Assembly (NCBI GenBank): GCA_003833135.1
Contig: QZLH01000037.1
Location: forward strand, 1-64,000
DNA length: 64,000 nucleotides
DNA from: Oehlia diaphana
Taxonomy: Eukaryota > Glomeromycota > Glomeromycetes > Glomerales > Glomeraceae
Reading direction: 5' to 3'
The notes beneath the pieces are model-generated. The model saw nothing but the letters and a program-made list of their open reading frames with translations, searched no databases and was not told the origin of the DNA. Shown in pieces: positions 5,998-49,791 of the stretch (positions are counted from its first letter, which is position 1; each line of letters opens with the position of its first letter). The position numbers and the translations under genes are program-made.

Positions 5998-6351
5998 TTA
6001 ATACGGCGGATACGGCGGATATTGAATATATTTTTCGAATAACTCTTCATAAGATCGATCGAAGCTTAAGACGCTGGTCGAACTTGCTGGAACGACCATT
6101 GTATTAAAGTTTTTTATTTGAGATTCAACTTCCGCATACTTTAAAAATTCGTTTTTTAAATAATATGGGAGATGATCTCGCCATATTTTTCCCATTAATC
6201 GCCCGATTTCTTGTGATGGCAAACGGGGGTTATCGAGTTTTAAAAATTTGTAATATTTTTTATAAAAAACGATGTAACCATTTGGCGTACGAGCCCTAAC
6301 GGTTCGTGTTTTCGACCTCACACGTTTCGGACGAGTAGGTTTTTTGGGCAT
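5998..6351 (-). CDS. HMG-box protein, MATA-HMG type (paralogue 1, inverted copy)
   Basis: This is an intronless 117-residue protein. A basic N-terminus (KKPTRPKRVRSKTRTVR) is followed by one HMG box at about residues 21-80. The box starts with the family hallmark TPNGYIVFYKKY, continues with NPRLPSQEIGRLMGKIWR and ends with LKNEFLKYAEVE. HMG boxes bend DNA, and MATA-HMG proteins resemble fungal mating-type regulators. The family is known to be strongly expanded in arbuscular mycorrhizal fungi. The C-terminus SYEELFEKYIQ resembles the acidic tail of the two other HMG proteins in the window, then ends in a PPYPPY tail. The ATG is supported by a TATA box about 55 bp upstream that is shared with the other two loci. 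Box identity to those paralogues is only about one third by eye. Confidence 0.85.
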   Translation of the reverse strand: MPKKPTRPKRVRSKTRTVRARTPNGYIVFYKKYYKFLKLDNPRLPSQEIGRLMGKIWRDHLPYYLKNEFLKYAEVESQIKNFNTMVVPASSTSVLSFDRSYEELFEKYIQYPPYPPY

Positions 6352-6403
6352 AACAAATAAAATGATTAATTCTCGCCAAAAATGAACAGCTAAATTTCTG
6401 TCA

Positions 6404-6411
6404 TTTTTATA
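6404..6411 (-). promoter_or_regulatory. TATA box of the HMG-box gene, shared by all three paralogues
   Basis: On the minus strand the sequence GTATAAAAATGACAG follows an AATTAATTAYGAAAAA stretch. The same block precedes the HMG genes at 43987 and 49402. Here the ATG inside the block is followed in frame by a TAG after three codons. The block therefore cannot be translated into the HMG protein and is better read as core promoter and 5' leader. Confidence 0.55.
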
Positions 6412-8560
6412 CTTTTTTTTTCGTAATTAATTTTTTATTGAAGGAAAAAACAGATTTTTTTCCGATTTAAACGTAATTTTAAATCGATTTTTCAAAGTTC
6501 GGAAATAAATGAAAGTCAACTCCGTCCATAAAAAGGAGTAAAGGATAAATTTGTTTAGAGTATTGTGTCAGAAGGTATAAAAAACCATGTGCGTTCATTC
6601 TTTCAATACACCAAATCGAAATGATGATTGATGACAAAAGGAAATAGATTAATGAGTTCAAATTTAGTAAATATTAAAAGGATCTATCGCCAAATTATTA
6701 ATGGTGTACCAAACAAAATTAAATGTAATGAAAAATGAAAATAAAAAATTTTAAGAGAGAAAAAATGAAGATTATTGATAAAATTGGATGTATTTATTAT
6801 GCTTTTATAGTCTAATTTTAGAAATATGAACCACCATATTTATCAACAATAATAATCATTGGAAAAAAAAAAAAATTAATAAACAAAATGTATGATGCCT
6901 TTTTTTATTGTAAAACATTATAAACCGATTTTTTTTTTTTCAAGGACCCTAAAAGACATTAGTTAAAGATCGGCATTATCAGAGATCTTTAAATTTTGAT
7001 TGGCTCAGTATTGGCTCCCTCATTTAGTAATAGGACGCGAGATCTACCCATCGTTTATTTTAATCGAAACTTTAAGTATTTATAATTATAATTTATTAAT
7101 TAATATAACATGAAGAAGGTTTCATTCGAAAATTATAATTTTATTAGCCGTATGTAATGAAAGAAAAAAAATTAAAAATATTTCTCTTTCAAACGCTGCA
7201 CGCATTCTTCTTTCTCCCTATTTCTTCCAAATATTTCCAAATTTTTCTTTCATTTTACTATTATCGAAATATTTTGTTACCAGTTGGGCTGTTGTATCAG
7301 TATGCATTGCAATATGCAATTATAATATATTGTTTCTCATTATGTGATTGTGTGTAATCTTTTCTTTCGCTTATGACAATATGCTGCATTAAATCAATGC
7401 AAAATTGGTAACTTTCTCAAAGTTTTTGTGTGATGATTATTGACTCACAATTAAAAATAGAGATAATAATAATGCTGCTAAGTTTAAGTGGATATTTACC
7501 TGTTTTAGTAGTGGTGTACCTTTCACGGCAAGGACCATCAGGTTATTAAACCATATTTGTAGATGAATTTTTGGTGATTATTGAGGGACTAAATACGGTA
7601 AATTTTGGTTAAGCTTAATGAATTTTTATTAATGATATCAAAATATTGGACCCTATATTTATTATTAAAATTTTTATTATTTACGAAAATAGAAAAATAT
7701 TAGGGTGCTAGAAAAAAGGGGCATTTGGTTTTGAATATTAAATATTGTTCTATATTAAATTTTTCAAATTGTTATACGTTTGATCACCATGCTTAAACTT
7801 GTTTATTCAGTCAATTTGGTAGTACTCACCCCATATTGGCGCTGGTAATCTCTATTAGAAGTTTTTCCGGTTCTGCACCACCTAGGTTTTAAAAAATTAT
7901 TTCTGATTTAATTCTTTCAAATACGATATTCTAATAAGCGTTTTCATTGCAATATGAAGCTTGGAATATGCAAAATATGGAAGCGAGAGCATCAAAAGCT
8001 TTTTATCTTTTTGTATTTAGAAAACCAGTACCATACATTTCATGGTTTCCTAGAGTAAGCTTGTATTCGAGTCACCTCAGTTTATTCCAAGTACTTTTTC
8101 TACAATTCATAGTTTTTTTTGAAATTAGGAAGAAATAAAACACAGCAGATGTGTTTATACCTGCAACAATATAGTACTTCACAACAGCAAATACCATTGT
8201 CACGAATTAAATATGGTTTGAATATATATAATTGTCAAATTTTAAATTTTGTGCAAAGTTTTATTCTTTAACATCTGTCAAGTCATGAGCAAATTTCTTC
8301 ATGGAAGTAGAGGTAACCAGATAATAGGTAATTAAAATAGGTATTAAAGGTAAGTTTATTGTGTTGACTACTACTACTTACAACTTACCGTCGGTAGCAG
8401 ATGGTTTAACTAACATGAATGTATTTTTTTGAACGGAACTTTAGGTCATAGTGTGGTCGCTGGGAGCAGGATCTTTGAATTTCCTGACATTAATTTTCGT
8501 GTGTCGTCGCGTGTTTCTATATTAGCAAGATCAATTTTTCCTTCTTGATACCAAATCCTT
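6412..8560 (-). repeat. inverted third copy of the HMG upstream region
   Basis: Read on the minus strand, several segments match the upstream regions of the two tandem HMG genes in the same order. These are 8425-8520 (with 41990-42085), 8268-8320 (with about 42165-42225), 8160-8240 (with about 47636-47700), 7700-7885 (with 42585-42785) and 6564-6645 (with 43741-43810). The match is patchy but collinear over about 2 kb. I see no gene of its own in it; the short frames at 6479-6661, 7157-7357 and 7947-8138 have no domain and fall inside this conserved non-coding DNA. Confidence 0.7.
7700..7850 (-). mobile_element. MITE-like element embedded in the HMG upstream region (copy 3)
   Basis: The ends are inverted repeats. 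The left end carries TTAGGGTGCTAGAAAAAAGG, and the right end read in reverse begins ATATGGGGTGAGTACTA. The inside matches, in reverse orientation, the elements at 42612-42782 and 48014-48178. It probably inserted before the HMG cassettes were duplicated. Confidence 0.5.
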
Positions 8561-9008
8561 GTCTAACGGGTTTACTTGGATTAACGTCGATCAAAATTTA
8601 TATTTCGCAAACGAGACACAAAAATGTATTTATGTTTTATAACGTGTTATATTATTATCGATAACTTAAATAAAGAGAATTTCATTTTACTTTATAGAAA
8701 CTGGCGGATAATCAGACAGACGGGCATTGTTTATTGGAAAGAGATTTCTCAAAAACACGTACATCTTTACTTCTTATTTAAGGTAAGACCGATCAATTAA
8801 TAATAATTTAATTATAAAATAATAAATAATGCTATTATATTTTTATTATAAGATGACATTTACATATATAATGAATGAAATACATAGAAAAATATTGTAT
8901 ATCAATTAAATAAATTACATGTGATTAAATAATATAATTAATAAAATTATTACATATACTGTATATATATATATAATTTTTATATCATAACTTATTCTTT
9001 TTTTTTTT

Positions 9009-11182: not shown

Positions 11183-12388
11183 TTTCTCGTTTTTTTTTTT
11201 TTTATATCCCCTCAATCGTTTTAGTGCAAATTATATAATTTTACGAAAAAAAAAATTGAGGGGATAATTTGGGCTAAATCAAAAAAAAAAGTTTTTTTTT
11301 TAAAGAAAATTTCTAATTTATCATGTGATAACTATTATTACACGAATTTGTATTAGTAAATTTATGACGACAAAACGATAAAATTATGATAATTATGATG
11401 AAATGAATTTAAACGATATGCGGGTTAGTAAAAATACAATCGACAGTGTGTATTACCATTAAAAGAAATTGATAATCACGCCACTAGGTAAATGGCTAAA
11501 TTTTACCAAGAAATTTACATTGAATGTCGTAACTCCAGGGTTTTCTGGCGTTTTAATTAAAATGACAACCTCAGATCATGAATTATTTTGGTTTAATGGG
11601 ATGAGAAAAAAAAATAATCCCTATTATTTTATTACTGCTGTTTTCATAAGACCATCCGACCGCCGACCCGCCGATCCGGTTCAGTTGTTATTTATTTTAC
11701 AAATCAAACTATCAAATCTGGATCACGTGACCAGTTAAAAATACCGGATCGGCGGGTCGGCGGTCGGGTTCAAAAATTTTTTTTTGTCCCGAATTTTATA
11801 ATCCCGACACCCCCCCATAATACTGATTTATTAATAAATTTCAAGATTGTTCATTTCGGTATTTTGAATTTCGGGATTATGAAATAAATAAAATGGGAAT
11901 AATAATGGGCATAAGACCATAATGGGCTAAGTCGCCGACTGCGGCTAGGTTGGCTTGGCCACAATGAGGCGAGGTTTTTGTGAGGTTAAGTTAAAAAGGT
12001 TTGATAAGTTTATTTGTTATTATGGTCTTATAAGTAAGTTTGTTTTTACGGTTTTATGGTTTACTATGATGTAAGATATTTGAAGTGTCAGGCTTATGAA
12101 ATGTCGGGATTATGGCGATTTGGGATTTTGACGTTTCTGGATTTAGAGTGTCGGGATAATGTACAGTACCTTCAGGATTTCGAGTTTCAAGATTTCGTAC
12201 CAAATCCGGGATGCGTCCCTATATAAAAGTAGAAAACAGTATGTTAAACCCTTTTTGATATACTAAATAAAATTGTAAAGCAGGTAGGCATATTTATATG
12301 ATTTTTTTTAAAATCCTTTATTATTAATTATTAACTAAAATTAATTATTATAATCTATAATATATATTATTTTCTATTACTAATTTTT
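11183..12388. other. intergenic with GC-rich hairpin and 'CCCGA' repeat debris
   Basis: No gene is seen. It holds the hairpin at 11656-11767 and, from about 11780 to 12210, scattered words of the type TCGGGATTAT and GATTTCGTACC. These recur in other repeats of the window (23.0, 34.0, 31.7 and 59.2 kb). Confidence 0.5.
11656..11767. repeat. perfect 25-bp GC-rich inverted repeat around a 62-bp loop
   Basis: The arm at 11656-11680 is the exact reverse complement of the arm at 11743-11767. Both are built from CCGACC/CGCCGA units and are about 70% G+C in otherwise very AT-rich DNA. The loop contains TCACGTGA at 11722-11729. It may be a small MITE or a hairpin-forming transcript element. Confidence 0.75.
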
Positions 12389-15410: not shown

Positions 15411-15413
15411 AAA

Positions 15414-15437
15414 TTAAATTAAAAAATTTTTTTCAAA

Positions 15438-15472
<35 letters not shown>

Positions 15473-16230: not shown

Positions 16231-16231
16231 A

Positions 16232-25431: not shown

Positions 25432-27080
25432 TTAAAGATCAATGGTGATATCAGGTAAATTTAAATCCAATAATAAAAATTGGGAACTATTAATTGATTC
25501 ATTAATACTTTCATAATTTGTTGTTGAACCATTTGTTGAATAATTACTTATATTCCTTCTATCTAATACATTTTGAAATTGTAATAATCTACTAGTATAA
25601 ATTGCTTCTTCACTTTTAACAGCCATAATTCTCTTTTCTTCAATTACATCAATAAGTTTATCAGCACTTAAAAATGAATTTCTAATTTGATAAACTTCAG
25701 AATCATCCATGTTCATAAGGGACCACCAATGATTGAAAATATATAATAATTGTTTGGCAGTAGGACGCATAGAAGGATCAGTACAACAACAATGTTTTGC
25801 CAATTCACCATAAACTTTTGGAGTTCCTTCAGCTAATTCCGGTCGTAAACCTTGACAAATTTCTAAAGCTAATTTATCATCATGTGGACGATGTGAGAAA
25901 GGTGGTATTCCAGTTAATATTTCGAACATTAATATTCCAATACTATAAATATCTGATCTCTTTGATACACCTTTTCCTAATATTACTTCAGGAGCTAAAT
26001 AAGGTAAAACTCCATAAACATTTGTTATAAAATTTTCTGCATCATGAAATGATGAACTTGCAGGATAATTTAATCCAGTATCTGATAAAGCTGAAGTGGT
26101 CTCTCTTGCTAAATCACCAATTTGTAAAACATTTCCTGAATGTATATTCCCATGTACAATTCCCGCTTTATGTAATGTGAGTAAATTTGATATAATATCA
26201 CAAAGCCACCAGATTTTTTCAGTCCAACGAAATGAAGAAAAATGACGGTGTAATAATAAATGTAATGAACCATGTTCAGCGTATTCAGTTACTAATATAT
26301 ATTCACCAGTAGATGGATCTAGTGAAATTCCATAAAATTTAAGAAGTTGTTGCATTCTTTTACGTGATTGAATTAGACTCGATTTATAATAAATCTTTAA
26401 CTGAATAAAAAAAAATCGAGGGAAATTAATTTAAGAAATAATAATAGTTAATAGTTTATACTATATAATATCAACATAATATCTAATATATCTTACCCGT
26501 TTTAAGTATTCATCAGATATTTCTTGAGAATTCTTTATACATTTTAAAGTAACTTTAATCGGACTTGTGCGCATATGTTCCTGCATTTTATTATTTCTTC
26601 CTTTTTTACCTTCAAGTTTATTTTTTCTCCTAATTATAATAATATTTAATATTATCAGTTATAAATAATATATAAAAAAAAATAAAAAATAAAAAAATTT
26701 TTTTATTACCTTCCTTGAATCCAAGTAGCTCGATAGACAACACCGAAACCACCTTCACCGATTTTGTGTATATCACGAAAATTATCAAAAGGAATCCATT
26801 CTAAGAAAGGGTCAGTCCAAGAAGTAGATTTTGATTGAGTGCGACGAATCAATTTATCAAGATCCCGAAGTCCAGTGTTAACACTTTTCATAGTACATTT
26901 TTTACACCATCCATCGATATCCAGATATCTTTGAATATGTTTACAAGGAAACGAAGGTTGATTAGAGGAAGAACCTGGTGAAAAAAAGGATTGTGATTGA
27001 AGCGAATTCGTTGGAAGGTTTTGTGAGATCGGAATTTTTATGTGACGTGAATTATTAATTGATGATAATGAGGTTCCCAT
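25432..27080 (-). CDS. kinase-like protein with degenerate zinc ribbon; probable pseudokinase (paralogue 1)
   Basis: The model has three exons: 26710-27080, 26497-26629 and 25432-26400, encoding 490 residues. Donors are GTAATA and GTAAGA; acceptors are TAG and CAG; the frame is kept. The N-terminus has CKH...WCKKC, a worn form of the CxxC/WCxxC ribbon usual in this Rhizophagus-type family. Then come the linker DLDKLIRRTQ and FLEWIPFDNF, a good glycine loop GEGGFGVVYRATW, and the ATP-anchoring Lys in IKVTLKCI. The catalytic loop reads HGNIHSGNVL (His251-Gly-Asn253), so the HRD aspartate is Asn. The metal-binding DFG site reads DTG (275-277). Downstream, GVLPYLAPEV, SDIYSIGILMFEI and a C-lobe ending at about residue 400 are normal. 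The loss of the catalytic base suggests a scaffold or very weak kinase. The tail AIYTSRLLQFQN is family-typical. Confidence 0.85.
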
Positions 27081-29067
27081 CTTTTCGAGTAAAATAATTT
27101 TGTTTTAATCTACAAGTGGAACTCGATCGAAATTCCTAATGGTATTTATATATACATGTCGAGAAAAAAAAAAAAAAAAAAATATTTATACATATATTTT
27201 AAATATATATATATATGAGTATTGTTAATTTTAAATTATTTATTAATTTAATTTAAAAAATAAATAATTTCAATTTAATTTAATTTTTTTTTTTTTTACT
27301 AAAAATTGCCACAATGGACCTTTTTTTCTTTTTACAAGGGCATAAAATATATGTATACATATACATATACGTGTTTATAATATACGTGTTTATACATATA
27401 TACAATATACTTTATATGTATTATGTATATATAATATATATTATGTAAATATATATATATATTATGTATATTATGTGTATATATATATATATGTTGGGAA
27501 GATCCAATCATTTTAGCGTTAGAAAGTACGTAAAAATAATAATATATCTTACATTTAAAGAACGATTTTTTTAAAAAAAAGAAATATTTGAAATCAAGAA
27601 AATCAAGAGAACATTTATTGATTTCTTTTTTTATTTTTTTTTTTAGGTAAAAACAAAAAAATAAAAAAAAAAAATTTTAAAGTTTTGAATCCTGTTTTAT
27701 ATATAATAAAAAATTTTTTTTTTTAAAAAAAATAATGAGGGAAATTTTTTTTTAACAATTTTTGTTTAAAAAAACTCCGAAAATTTTTTTTTTATAGGAG
27801 ACAATAGTAAAGATCATCGATATTTTTTTTTGAACAATAAAAAAAAAATATTAACTAATAATAGATAAAATTATGATAATCATGTTACAATATTTCTAAC
27901 AAGTATTTTTGTACGATACAAATTTTTTATTAAGTTTATCCATAAAAATCATTTATTCGGGTAACATAATAAAAAAGCCTTAAAAAAATATTTTGATAAA
28001 CAATAGGATTTCATAAATTAGGGTATAATGTTTAGAAAAAGAAAAAAAATATTAAAAAATTTTGAATGACAAAAATAAAAATAAATATTTATATATTCAT
28101 GCATTATGCATATTATCTTTCAATGAGCTACAAATCAAATTACGGAAAACTCACTAAATTAGCTACACAAGGATGTAAATATATTTTAGGATAGCGAATT
28201 AAAGTCATTATGCCATACAACAAAATTTTGTTTACTTATTTGTCGATCAAACGAAAAAGGATTATTATTTTTTTTTCTTTAATATTGTTGTTTAAGGATA
28301 TTTATTGTATAATAATTTTTTTATTTTATGGAGAAATTTTTGAAACAAGTGGAATTTTTACTTTTTTTTAGGGTTTTAAAAAATATTAAAAGGAACAATA
28401 TATATGATGTCAGAACTAGGGATTAAGGAGTCTCATGATTGATTATACGCAAAAGTGACAAAATTGACGCAATGTTGTTTCACTTTTTATATAACTTATG
28501 ATTTATGATATTCTTAACTTAGAACTATCAACAAGGTTTGAGTGGAGTGCGAAATCAGATGATAAAAATAAGCATATTATCTGTTATTAGCCAGAGATCA
28601 TTTAAACCTTTTATATGTTACACACTGCTAAATATCGCGTACTTCTTACCACTTAAAACTCTCTTTATAAAAGATTATAACATGACAACAAACTGTAAAT
28701 GATATTAATATGGTAAATCTCCCTGACACACATAAGTAATCATCGTGAAAATCATCCAAAAAAAAATAACCAATATACTTTTATTTTACGTTCTAATATC
28801 ACCAAATTCCGATAAAATCACACGTGAATTTAAATACATATACAGTATATGTATTATAATAAAATTATGATTTTCCCCTTATATTCTGAATTTCTTCAAT
28901 AGAACACTTTAATAAATGATGATTTTCAAAATTTCGAAATTTTTTAGACGAAAGAATGACAAAATGATTGACATTTTTATGCTTATCTTATTATTAACCA
29001 TATGATTTCCATCAGACCATCAGAATTATATATAAAACCATAAAAAGAAAAGAAAGAAAAAAAATTC
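27081..29067. other. intergenic between divergent kinase-like genes
   Basis: About 2 kb of AT-rich DNA between the start of the minus-strand gene and the start of the plus-strand paralogue. It contains (TA/TG)n runs at about 27170-27490 and many A/T homopolymers, but no supported gene. Both promoters must lie here. The stretch at 27674-27782 is repeated exactly next to the assembly gap at 50630. Confidence 0.5.
27674..27782. repeat. segment identical to the left edge of the assembly gap at 50630
   Basis: From TTTTAAAGTTTTGAATCCTG to AAAAACTCCGAAA the sequence is base-for-base the same as 50521-50629, including the lengths of the homopolymer runs (11 T, 8 A, 9 T). Such identity of AT homopolymers is unlikely for an old repeat. 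It points to a recent transposition or to an assembly artefact. Confidence 0.75.
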
Positions 29068-29081: not shown

Positions 29082-29787
29082 ATGAAAAAATATAAAGAAT
29101 TTAAAGAATTTTATAAAAAATATACATCAAAAAATAGGAAAAAGCCAAAGAGAGCCAGTTCCATATTAAGTTTTATATTTAACTTAAACTCAGTAAACTC
29201 TAATAACATTTGTTCTTATTGTAAGAAATCATTTGATAAACGATTATGGTGTGAAGAATGTGATCCACGTAATATAATTGAAGGTTGGACGAGTGAAGAT
29301 ATTAAAGTTGATAAATTTATAAAAGACACAATGTATGATGCGAGAAATAATGATAATTATTTTAATCATTTTCTTGAATGGGTTCCATTTGAGAGGTTAG
29401 CAAATGTAGAACAAATTGGTGAAGGTGGTTATTTTAAAGTATATTCCGCAATATGGGTAGATGGTAAATCAACCTGTATAAATAAACCGATGGATAAACC
29501 ATTTCGAAGAATATCAAATCTTAAACCTCTTATGAAAGTTGTTTTGAAAAAGTTAAAAGCACCACATAATGGTATGCCAGATTTATTTTTAAATAAGGTA
29601 TGTAATATATATATTCATTAATTATAATTATAATTTTATCGCGCCTGCGATACATCGCACCCTTTTCATTTTTTCTACTCGAATTTTTTCAGTTTGTATT
29701 TTTCACACCCTAGTTAAATGTCACATGTTTTAACATGTTTTAATTTTGCCTAGGGATGTATCGCAGGTGCGATAAAAAACAAAACCC

Positions 29788-29833
<46 letters not shown>

Positions 29834-31297
29834 ATTATTATTATTATTATTATTTAGCTTAAATTACATTGGAATATTTATTTAAAAGATATTAATAATA
29901 ATTTAAAATTTTATGGAATAACCAAAGATCCAATTGCAGATGAATTTATGATAATTACAGAATTTGCAGATCAAGGAAATTTAAGAGATTTTCTTTCAAC
30001 TAAATTTAACAGTTTTTTATGGAAAGATAAAATTGAATTATTATCAGATTTATTGTTAAATCTTAGTCATTTACATAAATCAGGTTATTTTCATAAAAAT
30101 CTTCATAGTGGTAATATATTAATGATTGATGGTTGTGCTCATATTTCAGATTTTGCTTTATCTGGTTCAATAAATGATCAGGATAATAAAGTATATGGTG
30201 TATTACCTTTTATTGCTCCGGAAGTTTTGATTGGTGGTCCTTATACTACATCATCTGATATTTATAGTTTTGGTGTAATTATGACTGAATTATCTTCAGG
30301 AAAACCTCCTTTTTATGATAAATGTCATGATTTGGGTTTAGCATCTGCTATTTGTAAAGGTCTTAGACCACAATTTGGTTTTGCAACTCCTAAAGCTTAT
30401 AGGAAATTGGCTCTTAAATGTATGAGTTCTAATCCAGCTAAAAGACCAACAGTTGAAGAATTAAATAATGTATTGAAATTTTGGTATAGATCTATTTTAA
30501 GTGATCAATGTTATAAAGAAAGAGAATTTTTTGGTTATAAAGGAAATGAAATTAAAGCTATGTTTAAAGATTCTGACGAAGAAATACCAGTTATTTCGAC
30601 TTCATATAGGAAAAATCCTTATGCAATATATATTAGTCGTGCATTTGATTTTACTAATTTATTAAATCCTATCAGAAGATCTATTATTTCATATCGATTA
30701 TCTAGTGAGAAATATAATAATCGATTATCAAATGAATTAAAAAAATCAAAATCTATGTGTATTAGTCAATCTATGTCGAATGAAGTTTTTTTTGAGAGAA
30801 GATCAAATCCTTTGTATATTGGTCGTCGATCTAAGTCAAATGAAGCTTTTTACGAGAGAAAACCAATTTCTATGTATATTACTCGTCCATCTATAGATTC
30901 TATTAACGAAGATGAAACTGTAATTTCATATGATAGTAGTCGACCATCTATAGAATCTGATGAAACTACATATGATAGAAACCTAATTTCTATGTATATT
31001 AATCGACCATCTATATCTGCTAACGACGAAGAAGTTTCATATGTAAGAAATATCGATTCTATATATATTAATCGATTATCTGCTAATAAGATTGAAATCT
31101 CATATGAAAGTTCACTTATTAATCGACCACCTATAATAAAATCTATTCATTCTATTGATGAGATCGATGAAAGTAATTCTGATTCTACATATATTAATAA
31201 TCTACAGTCTACATATGGTTTATCAAAAACTAAAACTAATAGATTTTCTCGTATTTCTTATCTTAAAGATAATGAAGAAGGTATGATAATTTATTAA
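29082..31297 (+). CDS. kinase-like protein with zinc ribbon and repeat-rich tail; probable pseudokinase (paralogue 2)
   Basis: The model has two exons (29082-29597 and 29858-31297), encoding 651 residues; donor GTATGT, acceptor TAG, phase 0. The N-terminal ribbon CSYCKKSFDKRLWCEEC is intact. The linker IIEGWTSEDIKVDKFIKDTM and FLEWVPFERL is typical of the expanded Rhizophagus-type kinase family. The glycine loop GEGGYFKVY lacks the third Gly; the Lys in KVVLKKL is present. The catalytic loop reads HKNLHSGNIL (His251-Lys-Asn253) instead of H-x-D, and the DFG site is DFA (270-272). Both changes argue for a pseudokinase. GVLPFIAPEV and SDIYSFGVIMTELSSG are normal. After about residue 420 there is a Ser/Tyr/Arg-rich tail with degenerate repeats around YINRPSI. 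The intron is 260 bp, far longer than others here, because a TIR element and a (TTA)n run sit in it. Confidence 0.87.
29634..29790. mobile_element. MITE inside the kinase-like gene intron
   Basis: The inverted ends share TTATCGCACCTGCGATACAT (left end with one change, GCGCCTGCG). The right end lies at about 29755-29778 and is followed by AAAACAAAACCC. The same terminal sequence bounds the larger element at 32115-33046. The inside is non-coding. It accounts for most of the excess intron length. Confidence 0.65.
29791..29856. repeat. (TTA)n microsatellite at the intron 3' end
   Basis: About 20 TTA/ATT units run right up to the TTTAG acceptor of the kinase-like gene. Length changes here would alter the polypyrimidine context of the splice site. 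Confidence 0.8.
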
Positions 31298-35856: not shown

Positions 35857-37215
35857 ATGAAAATGAAATTAAAGTCATTGATTAATAAATTAAACATATT
35901 TGAAAAAGATTCCAAACCAGCAATTAAAGGATGGACCAGCGGGAATTTAGATATTGATAAATTTATAAAAGATACAATGTATGATGCTAAACATTCTGAT
36001 AATTATTATTCTCACTTTCTCGAATGGGTACCGTACGATAGATTTACAAATATCAAACAAATTGGTGTAGGGGGATTTTCCAAAGTATATTCCGCAACAT
36101 GGTTAGATGGTAAATCATCATATTATAAATTGAATAGTGGAAGTTGGAAAAAATCAATTCCTAAACCTATGAAAGTTACTTTAAAGAGGTTGAATGGATC
36201 GCAGAATATGTCTCCTGAATATTTAAATGAGGTAAATTTTTATATCTAAATATAATAATATGATTATATGTAATTCATTCGCTAATTTTTTTTTTTTTCC
36301 GATAAATCATAGCTTAAAGTATGTTGGAATTTATACATCAAGTTAAAAGAATCGTTATTACCATTTTATGGAATAACTAAGGACCCAGAGACTAAGGAAT
36401 TTATGATTATTGAAAAATATGCAGGACAAGGAAATTTAAGAAATATTCTTTCAAATAATTTTAACAAGATTTTATGGAAAGATAAAATTGAATTATTATG
36501 TTATTTAGCATTAAACCTTAAAAATTTACATGAATTAGAATATTATCATAAAAATATTCATAGTGGAAATATCTTATTTTACGATCATTATTATAAAAAA
36601 TCATATATTTTAGATTTTGGATTAACTGGACCAGTAAAAGAACAAAAAGATAATGTAATATATGGAGTATTACCTTATATTGCTCCTGAAGTTTTAAATG
36701 GGAAACCATATACATCATCATCTGATATTTATAGTTTTGGTGTAATTATGGCTGAATTATCATCCGGAAAACCACCCTTTCATGATAGAAAACATAATGC
36801 AAATTTATCATTAGAAATATGTAATGGTCTTAGACCAGAATTTGGAAAAGAAACTCCGGAAATTTATAAGAAATTAGCTTATAGATGCATGAATGCTAAT
36901 TCAAATCAAAGACCAATAGCAACTCAATTATATGAAATATTGGAGATTTGGAAAGATTCTATTAATTGTAAAAATTTTGGTTATAAAAGGAAAGAAATTA
37001 AAGCTATATTTGAAGAAGCTGATAAAGGAATACCGGACATTTCAACCTCATATAAGAAGGATCCTGATGCGGTATATACTAGTAGAACATTTAAATTTAG
37101 CAATTTACCAAAACCTGTTAATTTATCTGTTATTGCCTCATATCTTAATGATGAAGAAAATTATCAAAGTAATTATTATTTTAAAATTTTATTATTATTA
37201 TTATTATTATTTTAA
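35857..37215 (+). CDS. kinase-like protein without zinc ribbon; probable pseudokinase (paralogue 3)
   Basis: The model has two exons (35857-36231 and 36313-37215), encoding 425 residues; donor GTAAAT, acceptor TAG, phase 0, at the same place as in the paralogue at 29082. The N-terminus is short and lacks the CxxC ribbon, starting near KPAIKGWTSGNLDIDKF. The glycine loop is GVGGFSKVY and the Lys lies in KVTLKRL. The catalytic loop is HKNIHSGNIL (His204-Lys-Asn206), again with Asn for Asp, while DFG (226-228) is intact. GVLPYIAPEV and SDIYSFGVIMAELSSG follow. The last residues KILLLLLLLF come from a (TTA)n run and look like readthrough into an intron. An alternative 3' end splices from 37168 (GTAATT donor) to 37272 (TAG acceptor) and ends NCHIS at 37288, giving 415 residues. 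The family-typical tail AVYTSRTFKFSNLPKPVN precedes this. Confidence 0.83.
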
Positions 37216-40345: not shown

Positions 40346-40380
40346 TTATTTCATGCAAAATATTTTTTTTTTACACAAAT

Positions 40381-40920: not shown

Positions 40921-41089
40921 AATTGAATTTTTGTTGTAATTTGCTGGTATCACGTGATTTAAAATAAAGTTTGATTGGCTACAAATTTAATATTGCGATA
41001 TCGTATTAATTGTTAAAGATAAATAAGATGGATTTTTTTTAATCAGAGATATATACGTGTTTCTTTATTAGATATTTTTTGAAAGATTG

Positions 41090-41410: not shown

Positions 41411-42611
41411 AATCTATAAATACTAAGAAGAAATGGTTAATTAAAGAATAAAATACATAAACCTATGACTTTACAATTTTAAGTGATTGAATAACTCTTC
41501 GCAATTTTTTTTAAAAAAAATAACTCTGGTTTTCATATATTAAATCAAATTAAAAATTTGCTAAAACAGACAAAAAAAGCATTAATAAAAAGAAACATAT
41601 AAATACCAAATAAACCTACCGAACTGAAATCACGTCTAAACAAAGGTTATCCGAATATAAAAATTGTTAGAGGGGGTGGCAAAAATTATGTACCACCCGG
41701 GGACTTTTTCTAAAAGTATGTACTGTATTGTTTAAACATGGTGACATAAAAGTTTGCCCGCTCGCTGTATGAGTCGATACTGTCATTGAACAACAATCTC
41801 GATAGTCGATAAAGAAAGTGCTCATAACTGATAATATAACACATTTGCTGTTTTCTGTGAATGAAAATTTTTTTATTTCATCAATAATAATATTGTTACA
41901 ACTTATGAAACATAATACATTTTGGTGTCTTGGTCACGAAATATTATTTGGTCAACATAATCCTATCAATCCGCTAGACAAGAATTAATGGTCTTGTCGG
42001 TATCGGCACATAAAACTCGTGTCATGAAAATTCAAAGATCTTGTTCCTAGTGACCACATTATATATGGCCTAAAGTTCAGTCCAAAAAAAAATAAATTTA
42101 TGTTAATTAAACTATCACTACCAGTAAAATTGCACTTTTAATAAACTACTTTTCGTTTTTCGCTACCTGTTTCCTCTAGTACTTCCATGGAGAAACTTGA
42201 TCATGACTTTGATAAATGTTAATATTCGGCTATATTAAGATTTGGCAACTATATTTCTTATTCACGTAAATTTGATTCGTGGGGAATCCTAATAAATGAT
42301 ATTTGTTCGTTGTTGTAAATATTATATTCTCAAGTGTGAGCACATATGTTTTATTTTTCCTAATTTCAAAAAAAAAAAAATGATATTGAGGGAAAAAAAG
42401 ACTGAGCTGATTTGAATATACAACAAGTTCACTCTGAGAAATAATGAAATATACAGGTACCGGTTTTCTAGATGCAGACTTTTGATGCTTCCGCAGTTCC
42501 GCTTCTATTAATTAATCCATATTATGTAAATTCCAAACTCCATAACGCAACGTAAAAGCTTATTAGAATGTACCGATTATCAATCGGAAAAACTTCCAAT
42601 GAAAGTTACCA

Positions 42612-42782
42612 ACGCTAATATGGGGTGATTAGATAAAAAGGGACTAAATTGATGAAAAATGTTTTTTTTTTTTTGCATTGTGAACAATCAATAACAATTT
42701 GAACATTTGATATAGAACCAATACTATCTAAAAATTTTTTCAGCGATTTGTTCCCTTTTTCTAGAACTCACCCCAATTTTGT
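42612..42782. mobile_element. MITE-like element in the HMG upstream region (copy 1)
   Basis: The left end ATATGGGGTGATTAGATAAA and the right end, in reverse AATTGGGGTGAGTTCTAGAA, both continue into AAAAGGGAMC and form inverted repeats. The inside is non-coding. It is present at the same place in unit B and in the inverted copy near 7.7 kb. Confidence 0.6.
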
Positions 42783-43941
42783 AACCATAATAATGACGCT
42801 TTTACTAATAAATATAGAGCTCAAAAAGTTTGCCCTTAATTTAACTTGATATTATTAAGTGAACCAAATTTTATTGGACACTTCTATTGATCGGGTCACT
42901 CAGTAACTATTCAAGATACCATACGAATATGGTTTAATAACCTGCTGGCTCCTTGTTGTGAGTTACTAAAACGGTTAAACACTCGCTTAAACTTTATCAT
43001 CTTTATTATTATATTGATAATTACAAGGAAGGTTAATAATCATACAAAAACTCCGAGAAATTACCAATTTCAAATGTAACATCACAAGCAAAGAAAGATC
43101 TAATGAAAGAGAATTATTATGAAACTAATAGATTAATGATTATATTGTCTTACCACAGCGCTAACTAATAATAATAATAAAGTGTTTAATAATAGAAATA
43201 TTTGGAAATATTTGGAATAATGGGGATAAAAAAAGAATGTTTGCGGCGTACGAAAAAGAATTTTTTTTTCTTCTTAATGAAGAATTTCATTACGAATGAA
43301 ATCTTCAGTTTAATTCATAAACGTTGTAACATTATGATACTTTGATAAAATTACTAAATTTGTTAATTGGTTATTATTGATCATGGTAGATCGCACCATA
43401 AATTTTTCTTTACGCGTTCTTGTGCCAATAAAATTAAAAAATCTCAGTATCCTATTTCGGAAATTTGTGACATTTACACGATAATATCGATCTTTCTTTT
43501 GTGCGATCGTATTTTCTATAAACTATACTAAATAATCAAAAAAAAAATGACATCACATAGATCATTAAAAAATGTTTCTATAGTTTACAAATACGGTTTA
43601 CACATTCTAAAATTAGATTGCAATAATGAAATACGTACTGTATAATATACTTCTATTTTTTTATTCTATTATATTTATATTTTGACAATAGGTTCCTTTT
43701 TAACATTTACTAAATTTAAAATTATCAATTTATTTCTATTGTCATCACTTCGATTTGGCGTATCGAAATAATGAACGAATGTGGTTTTTTCTATGCCCTC
43801 TGACGCAATGAGTTTGCCTTGAATGAAATTGCCCTTTCATCTATTTCCGAATTCGAAAAGAATATTTACATTTTCTTTTTAGTCGTAAAGAAAAACTGTC
43901 CATTGCTTTCAGCAGCAAGAAATTAATTATGAAAAAAAATG

Positions 43942-43948
43942 TATAAAA
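43942..43948 (+). promoter_or_regulatory. TATA box of HMG gene 2
   Basis: GTATAAAATGAC follows AATTAATTATGAAAAAAAA. The block is shared with the HMG genes at 5998-6351 and 49402. It lies about 40 bp before the preferred start codon. Confidence 0.5.
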
Positions 43949-43986
43949 TGACGAACATTTGGCCCACCTTTTTCGGTAGGGTGAAT

Positions 43987-44367
43987 ATGACAAAATATAA
44001 GAAAATACGTATGAATCCCTCCTCCTCAGCGACGGTTACAAAAAAAAAGAAACCCCCCAACGGTTTCTCCATCTTCTTCAAAATGTATACACCATATATA
44101 AAGCAACAATTCCCTAATTATTCATCTAACGAAATTATGAAAGAAGCCGCACATCAATGGAATAATACTCCACAAGATTTAAAGAATTCATTCCTGATTT
44201 ATGCCGCTGATGAAGGTTGGATTCATCATTATGTCCGGTCGACGGTGCCACCCCGATCGTCGACCAATATATTTGATTCGAGCAAAAAGGAAAAGAAAGA
44301 AGTAGAGAAAGATTGTCATCATCCGGATGACGATGAATTATTTCATAAATTTATAAATATGCCTTAG
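43987..44367 (+). CDS. HMG-box protein, MATA-HMG type (paralogue 2)
   Basis: This is an intronless gene of 126 residues from the preferred ATG at 43987. An in-frame ATG at 43939 would add 16 residues. I reject the longer form because that segment overlaps the shared TATA block and aligns to paralogue 3 only with offsetting indels. A basic N-terminus (MTKYKKIRMN...KKKK) is followed by one HMG box: PPNGFSIFFKMYTPYIK, FPNYSSNEIMKEAAHQW, LKNSFLIYAADE. The acidic C-terminus CHHPDDDELFHKFIN is shared in form with paralogue 3. HMG boxes bind and bend DNA, and this family resembles mating-type sex regulators. Box identity to paralogue 3 is about 55%, lower than that of the flanking non-coding DNA. 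The stop codon is followed by long T runs. Confidence 0.85.
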   Translation: MTKYKKIRMNPSSSATVTKKKKPPNGFSIFFKMYTPYIKQQFPNYSSNEIMKEAAHQWNNTPQDLKNSFLIYAADEGWIHHYVRSTVPPRSSTNIFDSSKKEKKEVEKDCHHPDDDELFHKFINMP

Positions 44368-44443
44368 TGCATTCTTTAAGCAACATAGTATATAATTTTT
44401 TTTTTTCGATTCGTATATTCGTTTATATATATATATATATATT

Positions 44444-44444
<1 letters not shown>

Positions 44445-44488
<44 letters not shown>
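44445..44488. repeat. 44-bp poly-T run downstream of HMG gene 2
   Basis: An uninterrupted run of 44 T lies between two TA-rich microsatellites, about 80 bp after the stop codon. Unit B has a (TA)n run at the same place instead. The open frame that reads it as poly-Phe is meaningless. Confidence 0.85.
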
Positions 44489-47239
44489 CGATTTTTTTAT
44501 TCTTTTATATATATATTTATATATTTTTTTTTTTTTTTTTTTTATTTCCTTCGTTTTTTTTTCGTTTCGATGAGTGCTGTTATGAAAAATTTTTATAATT
44601 AAAATTAAGCTTTATGATATATATATACAGTATGTGCATATAATTATATTGACAAATTCTCTGTCTCCCGTTTTATTATGAATTTGAAAATACTTGCTGT
44701 ACGAGTTTTTATTTTATTATTTCTGCATATTAAAAATTTGCGAATCATAATTGATTAATTCAGGCATAAAGAGATTAATAGTTTTATAATTCACGCGACT
44801 TTGATAAAACTGGCTGAACAATATCACAATTTTCACAAAACAGAATCCATCTTTAAAATTTTTAAATGGCCAATTAAATTTTATACAGCGCGGTGTTAAA
44901 ATTTTGACCGGAATTAAGCATGAATTATGACCGAATTAACAGTTAAAGTGCAATAATATTATTAGTTATTTTTTCATGGTAATTTTATAGGAATTATAGG
45001 TATCAATGATTTTATGGTACAACTGGTACGTTGAATAACTCTTACCTGGAGTCGATAGGAAAAAGTGGAAAAGTATAAAAAATATTACCAAAAAAAATCA
45101 AAAAAAAAAATCTGTGGTAATGTTTGATATGACCTCCTATATCAATACATGTTTCAATTTGATTTTGCACGCACTCATTAATGCTATTAACTATATTATT
45201 AGTTATTTACGTTAAAATATTAAGAATGATTTCTATAACTATGTTATATGTGAGGACCATGTCTTTCTTTGCAATATAACTAGCCACAAAATACCCCTAT
45301 AAAAAAGGAACGTTCACTGAATATACATAAAATAATCACTTATAATTGTTACTATTTAAACGTAATTTAACCAGCTTTTATATATAATTTGACCATTAAA
45401 TGTACATAATCAAAAATATGTATAGTAATATACCGTAAAATAACAAGATATTAAAATAAACAAATATTCACCATAGATGATATAATGATTATCCAAATTT
45501 TTCTCAATAAACATGACAGATTTTGCAGATAAATATATTTATTTGATCAATTTAACATGACAGTACATTATAATCATAGTTTTTGTTTAATGAACAAACC
45601 TGTCAATTTGATGATCACAAGCGATGTATCATTTTTGAATTCCCGAGAACTATTTTCTTAAAATCATCGAAATTGTAGATCAGCCGAGGCGGCGGTTGGC
45701 TTGATTGTTGCCTGTTTCTCGTCATAAATTTGCCATTTCCATTTCCAGTTCTCTTTACCAAAATATACTCGTCCTAGAGACCTGAAGAATTACCACAGAA
45801 GAATAAGGTTAATAAAAAAGTTTATTAAAAAGTAAAAAATTAAACTTAATAAAAGAAGCAACCAATCATCAAATCCCACGTGTCTAAACAATCCTGAAGA
45901 ACTGGCCATCAGTCTACGAAAGAAAATGACAAACATTAGTGGCTGTTTTATTAAATTAAATATTTTTAAATCCAAATCAAAATATATACATACATATCCT
46001 TTTTTTTTCAGTAAATAGATTTACTGATGTGGGTATGAAACTAATAAAAGTTCCAATTAAAATCATTGAACATCCATATTAGCAATGTGATAATTGTAAT
46101 AACTAAAGAGGGTACATTTAATGATAACGCCGGCGTAAGTTTAAAAAATTCGTTAAAATAAAACATTACATTTTTACTTGCCAAAATAAATCCCAAGTTC
46201 AAACTCTAAAGACCCGTAGGAATCGTCTAAAGAAAATAGAAAATACGAATTATAAGTTACCATTTGTTTATAGTAATTAAAGAAAAAAATTCATTACTGA
46301 AATCTTTATCAATAAAGAAGAAAAAAATGAAAAATTTTGCCTAATATTTCATTGAAAAAAATATACATTTCGTTGAAAAAAACTTAGCCGATCTTTTCGC
46401 TATCACGTGTCACGTGTCGCACGCGTCCGATATTCAATAATAATTTTTTTTTATAAGATATAGTCTAATTATAAAAAAGTAAATAATGTTTCATTTGAGT
46501 TAAAATATATACTAAGAATCTTTAATTTCTTTAATTTAGGAATTAATCAAATTCGAAAACATTAAACATTTTAACTAAATACTTTTCATTAGTTTATTCC
46601 ATATCAAAATTGTACAATTAATGTATATATTAATTAATAAATACATTCTATATAATTACATTCTACGTACATATTTTCAAAATGGACATTTATCGTACAT
46701 TACATTTTGTGTATCTAATAAAATATACGACTCTTCTGTTCGAGACTGCAATTTGTTAGGTGTGATACAAGTAGGTATATATTTAAATTATGTAGTATGA
46801 CTTTAATGGTGGCTTAGGAGTATGAGTAATAATAACTTCTTGCATGAGTAATAATAATAAATGTGATTTTTAGTGAATAAATGCTAACATCATTTCATAT
46901 TTGATTTATGATATGGCAATATGATGCGCTTTCATTTTGTTATTTTATACATTTTTCTACAATTAAATACGGTCTTATGATTTAAAGCAATTTATGCGAA
47001 ATCATAATTATCTGTTTAATTTTTTTCGAAATATCCTTATCATTCTCCATAATTTGACTTCAGATCCTACTAAAGAGTTTAATAAAAATTTAGCGACATT
47101 TTTTTAAATTAAGAATTTTAAAAATATTTTATCAGTCTTACCTTAATAAGAAGTAAAATCTCCTTTCTTAGTATGTACATGTTTTTTGGGAAAATTTCTA
47201 GTAATAAATATTGTCCGTCTGTTCGATCTTCCTTTGTAA
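44489..47239. other. intergenic between the tandem HMG units
   Basis: No supported gene. It is the downstream half of duplication unit A plus the junction at about 47080-47240. Tandem CACGTG motifs occur at 46405-46417. Confidence 0.5.
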
Positions 47240-48013
47240 TGCTGTTTTCTGTGAATGGAAATTTTTTCATGTTACGTTCAAGAGCAATAATACATTTTGG
47301 TGTCTTAACGAAATATTAATATGATTAACATTACTGGTATCGGCACATAAAAAACTCGTGTCACGGAAATTCAAAGATCTTGTTCCTAGCGACCACATTA
47401 TATATGGCTTAAAGTTCAGTCCAAAACTATGATAAACTACTAGTAAAATTGTAATAAAGTTAGTCAATACATTAAACTTAACTTTTAATGAACTATTTTT
47501 CGTTCTTCGCTATCTGGTTTCCTCTACTTTCATAGATAAACTTAACCATGACTTTGATAAATGTTAAGATTCGCTCAAAATTTATTCAACTTTATTAAGA
47601 TTTGGCAATTATATCCCTATTCACGTAAATTTGATTCGTGGGATCCTAATAAATGGTATATTTATTTGTTGTTGTAAATTACTATATTGTTTCAGGTGAG
47701 AGTACATACTGTATGTTTTGTTTTTCCTAATTTCAAAAAAAAAAACAATGATATTGCGAAAAAAAAAGACTGAGATGACGAATATACAACAAGCTCATTC
47801 TGAGAAATCATGAAATATACAGGTACCGGCTTTCTCGATGCAAACTTTTGATGTTTCCACTTTTATTAATTAATCCATATTATGTAAATTCCAAACTCCA
47901 TAACGTAACGTAAAAGCTTATTAGAATGTAATATTTGAAAGAATTAAGTCAAAAATTTTCTTATGATTTAAGGGACCGATTATCATCGGAAAATCTTCTA
48001 ATGAAGGTAACCA

Positions 48014-48178
48014 ACGCTAATATGGGGTGAGTATATAAAAAGGGACCAAATTGATGAAAAATATTTTTTTTAATTGTGAACAATCAATAACAATTTGAAC
48101 ATTAAATATAGAACAATACTATCAAAAAATTTTTTCAACGATTTATTCCCTTTTTTCTAGAACTCACCCCAATTTTGT
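48014..48178. mobile_element. MITE-like element in the HMG upstream region (copy 2)
   Basis: This is the counterpart of the element at 42612-42782, with ends AATATGGGGTGAGTATATAA and, in reverse, AATTGGGGTGAGTTCTAGAA. It sits at the same relative place upstream of the HMG gene, so it was present before the duplication. Confidence 0.6.
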
Positions 48179-49356
48179 AACAAATATATTTCATAATAAT
48201 GACGCCTTTACTAATAATTGTAGAGCTCAAAAAAAAAAAAATTGCCCTTAATTTAATTTGATATTATTAAGCGAACCAAATTTTATTGGACACTCCTATT
48301 GATCGGGTCACTCAATAATTATTCAGGGTACCATACGAATATGATTTATTAACCTGATGGCTCCTTGAAAGGTACAACGCTACTAAAACGGTTAAACACT
48401 CGCTTAAACTTTATCATCTTTATTATTATTATATTGATAATTACAAGAAAGGTTAATAATCACACAAAAACTCCGAGAAGTTACCAATTGTGAAATGTAA
48501 CATATTGTCACAAGCAAAAAAAGATTACGCATAATGAAAGAGAATTATGAAATAATGATTATATTGTCACTACATTAATAAAGTGTCTAATAGTTAATAA
48601 TAGAAAAATGAATAAAGAATGTTTGCGTCGTACGAAAAAGAATTTTTTTTTTTCTTCTTAATGAAGAATTTCATTACGGCTAATATTTTCGAATGAAATC
48701 TTTTTCTAATATATTCAGTTAATTCATAAACGTATAATGCTTTGATGAAATTACTAAATTTGTTACCATGATAGCAGATCGCACCATAAATTTCTCTTTT
48801 ACGCGTCTATAAAATTAAAAATTCTCAGTATCCTATTTTGGAAATTTGTGACATTTACACAAGATAATGCCGATCTACGATCGTATTTTTCTCCAATATA
48901 CTATAATTAAAAAAAATTACATCATATATTTCCATTATTATCGTTTGGATCATTAAAAAACATCTCTATAGTTTACAAATACGGTTTACTTATTCTAAAA
49001 TTAGATAGATTAAATAGATTGTAATAAAATCATTAATCTTAAATTTTTTTATTTCTCATTTCTTACATTCAACTTTTTGTTTACTAATAATATTTTGACA
49101 ATAGGTTCTTTTTAACATTTAGTAAAATTAAACTCTTATCAATCTATTTCTATTGTCATCATTTCGATTTGGCGTATCGAAATAATGAACGCACGTAGTA
49201 TTTTTTTTTATGCTCTCTGACGCAATGTATGTGTTTACCCTGAATGAAGTTACCTTTCATCTATTTCCAATTTCGAAAAGAATATTTCCATTTTCTTTTT
49301 AATCGGAGAGAAAAACTGTTCATTGACTTCAGCAAAAAATTAATTATGAAAAAAAG

Positions 49357-49363
49357 TATAAAA
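49357..49363 (+). promoter_or_regulatory. TATA box of HMG gene 3
   Basis: AGTATAAAATGACA follows AATTAATTATGAAAAAA, as in the two other HMG loci. It lies about 40 bp before the preferred ATG. Confidence 0.5.
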
Positions 49364-49401
49364 TGACAAAAATTTGGCTCACCTTTTTTCGGTGTGTTGA
49401 G

Positions 49402-49791
49402 ATGTCTAACTCAAGAAGAGAGATCTGCGCAAATCAATCTTCAAAAGTAGTATGCATTAAAAAGAAGAAATACCCTAATGGATTCGCTCTTTATTTTAAA
49501 ATGGACAGAAGCAGATTGAAAGAAAAATTTCCCAATTACAGCCCGCAGGAAATTATGAAAGAAGCAGGAAGAAGTTGGAAGAGATTCCCCCAAGAACTTC
49601 GAAATTCTTTTTTGATGTATGCTATAAATGATAGCTCCTTACGACATTATGGCCGGCCAACACCACTACCCCTACCACCACTCCCACCCCCATATACATC
49701 ATTAACTACCGTCTTTGATTATAAAGAATGTCGTCATCCGGATGATGAAATGTTTGATCAACTCATAAATCCGGAATGCTATACTCCTTAG
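49402..49791 (+). CDS. HMG-box protein, MATA-HMG type (paralogue 3)
   Basis: This is an intronless gene of 129 residues from the preferred ATG at 49402. An in-frame ATG at 49363 overlaps the shared TATA block and would add 13 residues. The N-terminus MSNSRREICANQ is followed by a Lys cluster. The HMG box reads YPNGFALYFKMDRSRLKEK, FPNYSPQEIMKEAGRSWKR and LRNSFLMYAINDSS. A proline-rich linker (PLPLPPLPPPY) precedes the C-terminal CRHPDDEMFDQLIN. Paralogue 2 shares the C-terminal motif but not the proline linker. It is probably a DNA-binding regulator of the mating-type HMG class. The N-terminal 25 residues barely resemble paralogue 2 although the DNA just upstream of the gene is well conserved. 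Confidence 0.85.
   Translation: MSNSRREICANQSSKVVCIKKKKYPNGFALYFKMDRSRLKEKFPNYSPQEIMKEAGRSWKRFPQELRNSFLMYAINDSSLRHYGRPTPLPLPPLPPPYTSLTTVFDYKECRHPDDEMFDQLINPECYTP

What the first reader, a model, noticed from the sequence alone, without database searches (positions are those of the whole stretch)
5998..49791. Three MATA-HMG cassettes whose upstream DNA is better conserved than their proteins
The HMG genes at 5998-6351 (minus), 43987-44367 and 49402-49791 (plus) share collinear upstream DNA over about 2 kb. The inverted copy runs from 6412 to about 8560. By eye the two tandem copies match at roughly 80-85% in upstream non-coding DNA. Their HMG boxes are only about 55% identical in protein, and about one third identical to the inverted paralogue, whose best upstream segment (6564-6645 against 43741-43810) is still near 80%. 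Non-coding DNA should drift faster than coding DNA. This pattern therefore suggests diversifying selection on the DNA-binding protein, or gene conversion restricted to the promoters. Strong diversification of MATA-HMG genes is known in arbuscular mycorrhizal fungi; the promoter-bearing cassette structure is what I would follow up.
Basis: partly seen in the sequence, partly recalled or inferred. Interest (0 to 1): 0.85.

Follow-up and report, generated by a model that had tools for sequence, protein, structure and literature searches.

The report
HMG genes sharing one conserved promoter
In a root-symbiotic fungus, three old and very different copies of a DNA-binding (HMG-box) gene still share about 2,000 bases of upstream DNA that has changed far less than even the silent positions of the genes, so the switch seems to be kept the same while the proteins have drifted apart.

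Summary
Between tandem copies B and C, upstream DNA (1,878 ungapped sites) differs at 14% of sites and a downstream flank (439 sites) at 13%. Inside the genes 14 of 17 fourfold-degenerate sites differ, and codons for shared residues match only as often as chance (29 of 55; 27.7 expected). The break falls at the start codon. By blastn the upstream DNA was found only at these three loci in the 108.8 Mb genome; a diverged promoter-proximal form lies before HMG genes on two other contigs (weaker evidence).

Diversifying selection is not the explanation: silent change exceeds amino-acid change, and R. irregularis counterparts are ordinary (B 65/69, C 111/129 identical) while B and C share 48%, so B and C predate that species split. 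I favour ancient paralogues whose long upstream region, including a TATA-like core promoter, is held by purifying selection, with some B-C gene conversion (candidate tract 42460-43130). Conversion of both flanks that spares the coding sequence is the main rival. The deciding comparison is the same flanks in R. irregularis, which I could not fetch.

The genome is probably Rhizophagus (Oehlia) diaphana. A mating role is not shown.

The parts
5998..6351 (-). HMG gene A (117 aa)
   Evidence: ORF; Pfam HMG_box 27.1 bits
6375..8850 (-). A upstream region, homologous to the upstream regions of B and C
   Evidence: ungapped p 0.33-0.35 against 0.53 in one shuffled control
43987..44367 (+). HMG gene B (126 aa); start at the second ATG
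41999..43986 (+). B upstream region (weaker matches to A and C back to about 41846)
42460..43130 (+). candidate B-C gene-conversion tract within the upstream region
   Evidence: ratio of B-C differences to A-only changes 0.35 against 0.70-0.80 in the other three segments; Fisher p 0.0002-0.007, segments chosen after seeing the profile
43665..43986 (+). B promoter-proximal module, the part whose diverged form is found before HMG loci on other contigs
43942..43948 (+). TATAAAA (putative TATA box) in B, 45 bases before the start codon
   Evidence: sequence; TATAAAA also in A, C, C1010, C1067a
44621..45094 (+). B downstream conserved flank
   Evidence: p 0.128 against C
49402..49791 (+). HMG gene C (129 aa)
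   Evidence: P0017 and R. irregularis counterpart P0018
47336..49401 (+). C upstream region (matches A further, from about 47080)
49095..49401 (+). C promoter-proximal module
49357..49363 (+). TATAAAA in C, 45 bases before the start codon
   Evidence: sequence
6404..6411 (-). TATAAAAA in A, 60 bases before the start codon
   Evidence: sequence
49993..50459 (+). C downstream conserved flank
45075..45232 (+). further island shared by the two tandem units (B side)
   Evidence: 84-85% with 51154-51320
51154..51315 (+). the same island, C side
46719..47078 (+). island between B and C, repeated after C
   Evidence: 76% with gaps, ungapped p 0.10
51839..52184 (+). copy of the 46719-47078 island after C
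43748..43768 (+). inverted repeat TTTCGAT-7-ATCGAAA in the module (first base differs in B; also 49162-49182 + and 6601-6621 -)
   Evidence: with up to 2 mismatches, 4 places in the genome: these three and one other with 2 mismatches; reversed-pattern control 1

Best explanation
A, B and C are ancient paralogues of a small HMG-box transcription-factor gene. Shown: their synonymous sites are saturated; B and C had separated before R. irregularis and this fungus split; about 2 kb upstream (all three) and a downstream flank (B and C) stay alignable. Supported, with weaker scores: a diverged form of the promoter-proximal part lies before HMG loci on two other contigs. Inferred: the upstream region, with a TATA-like core promoter 45-60 bases before the start codon, is a shared cis-regulatory unit held by purifying selection, so the copies keep one expression programme while their proteins diverge under ordinary purifying selection. 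In addition B and C, in direct tandem, have probably exchanged sequence by gene conversion in parts of the flanks (candidate tract 42460-43130), which would not spread into the coding sequences because these are already too different.
For: Fourfold sites 14/17 different against 267/1878 upstream. Shared-residue codons at chance in all three pairs (29/55, 13/39, 11/31 identical; 27.7, 18.8, 14.1 expected), unlike the control tandem pair 56383/60290 (85/98; 56.1 expected). Protein tree: B to C about 1.0 substitutions per site, C to its R. irregularis counterpart 0.18 (branch sums). Upstream windows conserved in B-C are also conserved against A (Spearman 0.64, p=7e-4, 24 windows). A profile of the A/B/C upstream finds a C1067 site (E 2.5e-7) and C1010 (E 5e-4, ending about 20 bases before its start codon); best of 29 reversed decoys E 3.8. 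C1010 and C1067a upstream regions align over 710 columns (E 4e-60; 489 columns, E 8e-43 with stricter scoring) while their codons are at chance (20/42; 20.7 expected). Four relatives without the module (C981, C269, C233, C577), equally saturated, show an upstream or downstream match to each other in 0 of 6 pairs at E 1e-5.
Against: B-C flanks are very similar on both sides, including 46719-47078, over 2 kb from either gene; 2 kb of nearly continuous constraint is long for a fungal promoter (recalled). Indels are frequent (43 gap events beside 267 substitutions), as in neutral DNA. The distal 1.1 kb block was found only at A, B and C: its profile gave no significant match to another locus. The two cross-contig matches carry large composition-bias corrections (42.6 and 80.9 bits beside scores of 22.7 and 11.8), and the profile of the proximal block alone gives them only E 0.003. 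A's protein is not clearly B and C's sister: its best genome match other than itself is C981 (52% over 57 residues, E 7e-10) ahead of B (E 1.6e-9), and the tree leaves A unplaced, though a clade A+B+C is not rejected (delta logL 0.26, AU p 0.50). No Rfam match, and the folding test was too noisy to use. No expression data.
Confidence: 0.53

Rival explanations
1. Concerted evolution: repeated gene conversion homogenises both flanks, while selection for (or simply the size of) the protein differences keeps the coding sequence out. This gives a peak of divergence over the gene, as in primate red/green opsins.
For: Flanks equally similar on both sides of B/C (p 0.142 and 0.128); direct tandem arrangement; excess B-C identity in 42460-43130; overdispersed mismatches (variance/mean 4.5, ends of the alignment included); longest identical run 64 against 42 expected (p=0.025). 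The model and the opsin case are described in PMC3924837 (passages).
Against: B-C and A-BC conservation rise and fall together. A diverged proximal module is found on other contigs. The inverted copy A, about 35 kb away, also keeps 2 kb of upstream. Unalignable intervals lie between highly similar islands.
Confidence: 0.3
2. Coding sequences changed unusually fast or were exchanged: a hypermutable gene body, or replacement of the coding sequence behind a fixed promoter by a divergent donor.
For: Divergence starts at the start codon and ends about 250 bases after the stop. A's protein scores slightly better against C981 than against B, which would fit an exchanged coding sequence at A.
Against: R. 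irregularis counterparts of B and C are 65/69 and 111/129 identical, so these gene bodies evolve at an ordinary rate. B and C are each other's best matches in the genome (45%) and form a supported clade (SH-aLRT 99.9, bootstrap 97). For A, a clade with B and C is not rejected, nor is one with C981 (AU p 0.50 and 0.24).
Confidence: 0.09
3. Diversifying (positive) selection on the HMG proteins.
For: pN of B-C (0.30) exceeds the flank difference (0.14).
Against: pS 0.80 exceeds pN 0.30; 0 of 500 bootstraps reversed it; third positions 39% identical against 67% and 73% at first and second; conserved counterparts in R. irregularis. Positive selection on amino acids alone cannot saturate synonymous sites.
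Confidence: 0.03
4. Old alternative alleles (idiomorphs) with recombining flanks, later brought together in tandem by unequal crossing-over.
For: Sharp border at the start codon, similar flanks on both sides, very old gene divergence.
Against: R. irregularis has counterparts of both B and C, though whether in the same strains was not seen. No population data. A diverged module lies on other contigs.
Confidence: 0.05

Closest known systems
Expanded MATA-HMG / SexM-like HMG family of arbuscular mycorrhizal fungi
   Same: Small HMG-box proteins in many diverged copies; at least 125 HMG_box matches in this genome (150 of 196 candidates scored). [quoted passage not shown] Riley et al. 2014 was seen only in a reference list.
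   Different: A shared long upstream region conserved beyond synonymous sites was not in the passages seen; a search for MATA-HMG + promoter + Rhizophagus gave 0 papers in the open-access library.
Duplicates under gene conversion with a protected divergent core (red/green opsins; Teshima and Innan model)
   Same: Low divergence in flanks, peak over the functional region (PMC3924837, passages).
   Different: Here the core is saturated at synonymous sites, the border is the start codon, and a diverged form of the upstream part occurs on other contigs.
Yeast HML/MAT/HMR cassettes (recalled)
   Same: Three copies, one inverted, with shared flanks around dissimilar genes.
   Different: Silencing, switching and a cutting enzyme were not tested and nothing here shows them. 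The genes are homologous, and what all three share is mainly the promoter side.
Mucoromycotina sex locus (SexM/SexP between a triose-phosphate transporter and an RNA helicase; PMC7490403 and PMC3834313, abstracts and passages)
   Same: HMG-box gene as key regulator.
   Different: Neither flanking gene was seen among 10 window ORFs scanned.

Membership tests
HMG-box proteins (Pfam PF00505) | score above curated cut-off | tested here: met
   B 36.1, C 31.8, A 27.1 bits against 25.4, though the match covers only 2-50, 2-50 and 3-41 of 69 positions
MATA-HMG subfamily | closest to fungal mating-type HMG boxes in a domain tree | not tested
Mucoromycotina-type sex locus | TPT and RNA helicase genes beside the HMG gene | tested here: not met
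   three kinase ORFs, two ORFs of a BBE-type FAD enzyme, an amino-acid permease C-terminus and four ORFs without family, of 10 scanned; other window ORFs and the rest of the contig not scanned
Concerted evolution by gene conversion | paralogues within a species more alike than orthologues between species in the converted part | not testable with these tools
Concerted evolution by gene conversion | tracts of excess similarity | tested here: inconclusive
   one tract, p 0.0002-0.007 in 3 of 6 comparisons, segments chosen after seeing the profile
Conserved cis-regulatory region | conservation pattern shared among three or more copies | tested here: met
   (rho 0.64 over A/B/C); one search adds two loci with weaker, bias-corrected scores
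Conserved cis-regulatory region | drives expression | not testable with these tools
   needs reporter or RNA data
Yeast-type mating cassettes | silent copies and switching | not testable with these tools
   no expression or population data

The most novel reading that the evidence does not exclude
The array is a cassette system: several divergent HMG regulators are kept behind one interchangeable control region, so that the cell uses one or another of them (gene choice or mating-type-like identity), with flank conversion keeping the copies interchangeable.
Probability: 0.08. Interest if true: 0.9.

Novelty: new variant of a known kind. Interest (0 to 1): 0.55.

Why it matters
HMG genes are candidates for sex determination in arbuscular mycorrhizal fungi, whose sexuality is an open question. 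PMC7490403 (abstract and passages) reports HMG-box genes induced when two R. irregularis isolates coexist; whether those are relatives of A, B or C was not tested. A control region kept for longer than synonymous sites can record marks a set of HMG genes that probably respond to one signal, gives a short promoter to test, and separates a regulatory signature from protein diversity, which alone can be misread as diversifying selection.

Tried and rejected
Dispersed repeat: rejected, blastn found the upstream DNA only at the three loci. Hidden exons upstream: tblastx matches change frame from piece to piece and lie on both strands (best 25 listed per pair). Known structured RNA: no Rfam match at gathering threshold in the window. 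RNA folding of the upstream alignment by column shuffling: z-scores dominated by windows with almost no folding energy; not used. HMG relic after the C1067 module near oriented 4700: looked likely by eye, but tblastn was not significant (best E 0.25 there; decoys 0.067-0.081), so not claimed. Extra hit of the C1010 upstream on C163: a T-rich match in a locus without an ATG ORF of 50 aa or more. Extra motif hit on C263: no HMG-like ORF among the six listed of 60 aa or more (one looks like threonyl-tRNA synthetase by eye), and the reversed-pattern control also gave 1 hit. The motif was derived from the six module sites that it then finds, so only the near-absence of others is informative. Permissive blastn of flanks: upstream decoys reached E 1.5e-8, so weaker matches were not used; two just beyond that, C1010-C269 (E 6e-9) and C1067a-C269 (E 2e-9), lie collinear near the start codon and could mean a faint module at C269 too. 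Downstream matches had no decoy. Bacterial promoter scan: not applicable to a fungus. The NG86 test started at the first ATG (43948, 49363), 13 codons now assigned to the leader; one search repeats the codon test from the second ATG.

Control limits: DNA comparison covered 26 fetched loci and three window regions, some holding several HMG genes, out of at least 125 HMG matches. In the C166 and C88 clusters the matches between genes overlap the HMG boxes, with no separate flank match, but their synonymous sites were not computed. Promoter sharing elsewhere in the genome is not excluded. Its AU test used 5,000 resamplings, which the program calls too few for reliability.
Full report
What is there. 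The window lies in a 108.8 Mb genome of 1672 contigs. Three proteins encoded on its other contigs are 100% identical to proteins labelled Rhizophagus diaphanus (P0002, P0003, P0008), a name NCBI now files as Oehlia diaphana; the assignment is my inference. The HMG genes are A (5998-6351, minus), B (43987-44367, plus) and C (49402-49791, plus). All pass Pfam's HMG_box cut-off. The database proteins P0001 and P0017 start at 43987 and 49402. The earlier ATG at 43948/49363 overlaps a TATAAAA sequence that is present before A, B, C, C1010 and C1067a, 45-60 bases from the start codon (B and C 45, A 60), and in A it would give only four residues, so the second ATG is the likely start.

Flanks against genes. 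B and C lie in a tandem block of about 5.3 kb. Upstream they differ at 14.2% of 1,878 ungapped sites, downstream (44621-45094) at 12.8% of 439, in the coding sequence at 43.1% of 378, and in the low-complexity stretch after the stop codon at 40.6% of 187. The change of level falls at the start codon. Over the coding sequence pS is 0.80 and pN 0.30 (NG86, 129 codons from the first ATG; 0 of 500 bootstraps with pN>pS). From the second ATG, 14 of 17 fourfold sites differ, and codons for shared residues are identical at 29 of 55 places where 27.7 are expected from codon use (28 of 51 against 24.7 in the multiple alignment). A-B and A-C are saturated too (13 of 39 against 18.8, 11 of 31 against 14.1). 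So silent sites are about as different as they can be, while non-coding flanks are 86% alike. Two in-window control pairs behave differently: the tandem pair 56383/60290 keeps 85 of 98 codons (56.1 expected) with flanks at 17% and 34% difference, and the kinase pair keeps 110 of 142 (91.5 expected) in its second open stretch and 43 of 61 (37.4 expected) in its first (kinase flanks not measured).

Not positive selection, not hypermutation. Amino-acid selection cannot saturate silent sites. The R. irregularis protein P0018 matches C at 111 of 129 residues, and the short R. irregularis protein P0015 (69 aa, lacking the start and 25 inner residues) matches B at 65 of 69, while B and C match at 56 of 116. 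In a tree of 20 proteins C and P0018 are 0.18 apart and B and C about 1.0. B and C therefore separated before these species did, and C at least evolves at an ordinary rate. The puzzle is the slow flanks, not fast genes.

How far the flank reaches. By blastn the C upstream region has 4 matches in the genome, all at A, B and C (simple repeats and very common words are skipped). A profile of the three upstream regions was searched against 28 real sequences (186,689 bases: 27 loci and the rest of the window) and 29 reversed decoys (203,689 bases). Two matches came under E 0.001: C1067, oriented 4416-4702 (E 2.5e-7), about 0.86 kb before an HMG gene, and C1010, oriented 4319-4800 (E 5e-4), directly before the HMG gene at 4820. 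The best decoy was E 3.8; both matches carry large bias corrections; the proximal block alone gives them E 0.003, and the distal block alone finds nothing significant. A model built from six copies finds its own members and a weak further site on C1067 (L050, E 0.003). C1010 and C1067a share 710 aligned columns upstream (66%, E 4e-60; ungapped p 0.297 over 582 sites against 0.524 in one shuffle), although their shared-residue codons are at chance (20 of 42 against 20.7). C1067b and C1067c show the same on both flanks (E 1e-23 upstream, 2e-28 downstream; codons 26 of 45 against 23.1). Among 55 pairs of 11 related HMG genes, five (A-B, A-C, B-C, C1010-C1067a, C1067b-C1067c) have upstream matches beyond E 1e-15; reversed decoys reached 1.5e-8. 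Pairs among C981, C269, C233 and C577, just as saturated, have none at E 1e-5 (0 of 6). That is what old neutral flanks look like here, so retention in the other set needs a cause. A 21-place motif of the module occurs at 7 places in the genome: the six sites it was derived from and one with no HMG-like ORF listed; the reversed pattern occurs once.

Constraint or conversion. For constraint: windows well conserved between B and C are also well conserved against A (rho 0.64, p=7e-4, 24 windows; 0.68 with all 28 windows); similar islands are separated by DNA without a comparable match (45238-46718 against 51321-51838); and a diverged proximal module is kept across contigs. For conversion: 42460-43130 has few B-C differences for its distance from A (45 beside 129 A-only changes; 54:77, 95:119 and 42:57 in the other three segments; Fisher p 0.006, 0.0002 and 0.007; segments chosen after seeing the profile); mismatches are clustered; and B and C are equally alike on both sides. 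I conclude that constraint is the main cause and conversion a local addition, with the species comparison as the deciding test.

A loose end at A. A's upstream belongs with B and C, but its protein matches C981 slightly better (E 7e-10) than B (E 1.6e-9). The tree leaves A unplaced on a long branch; neither A+B+C nor A+C981 is rejected (AU p 0.50 and 0.24). B+C is supported (99.9/97), and C1067a+C1010 falls next to it with weak support (72/53), in line with the shared module. An exchanged coding sequence at A is therefore possible but not shown.

What it does. From the anatomy, the shared unit looks like a promoter: a TATA-like core near the start codon, a proximal block of about 300 bases with an inverted repeat (TTTCGAT-7-ATCGAAA; with up to 2 mismatches only these three sites and one other in the genome), and at A/B/C a distal block of about 1.1 kb. 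No consistent coding frame and no known RNA was found in it. The simplest account is common regulation of several divergent HMG regulators; this is inferred, not shown. Whether they act in mating is unknown: no neighbour typical of the Mucoromycotina sex locus was found among 10 ORFs scanned.

Literature. PMC3834313 and PMC7490403 (abstracts and passages), PMC4771724 (passages) and PMC3924837 (passages) were seen; other papers only as listings. Riley et al. 2014, a main paper on this family, was seen only in a reference list. That a shared promoter of these genes is not in print rests, in an open-access library only.

Noticed in passing
27655-27782 and 50502-50629: A 128-base element 99% identical at two places; the second copy sits in the stretch after C that has no counterpart after B and looks like a recent insertion.
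   Followed up: no
62972-63195 and 63450-63673: Two 224-base direct repeats, 100% identical, 478 bases apart start to start.
   Followed up: no
56383-56943 and 60290-60859 (minus): Tandem pair of small proteins without Pfam match, with a shared signal-peptide-like start (by eye). Used as a control pair.
   Followed up: partly
29082-31297 and 35857-37215: Tandem pair of protein-kinase-like genes, a third kinase at 25432-26355.
   Followed up: partly
5998-6351, 43987-44367, 49402-49791: HMG coding sequences have GC3 0.31-0.37, against 0.09-0.25 in the kinase and small-protein pairs of the window; reason unknown.
   Followed up: no
L044 and L050 (contig C1067): A 27 kb contig with three HMG genes of this subfamily; module-like stretches lie about 0.9 kb and (weakly, E 0.003) about 1.3 kb before two of them.
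   Followed up: partly
5998-6351: A's coding sequence and A's upstream may have different nearest relatives (C981 against B/C); unresolved.
   Followed up: partly
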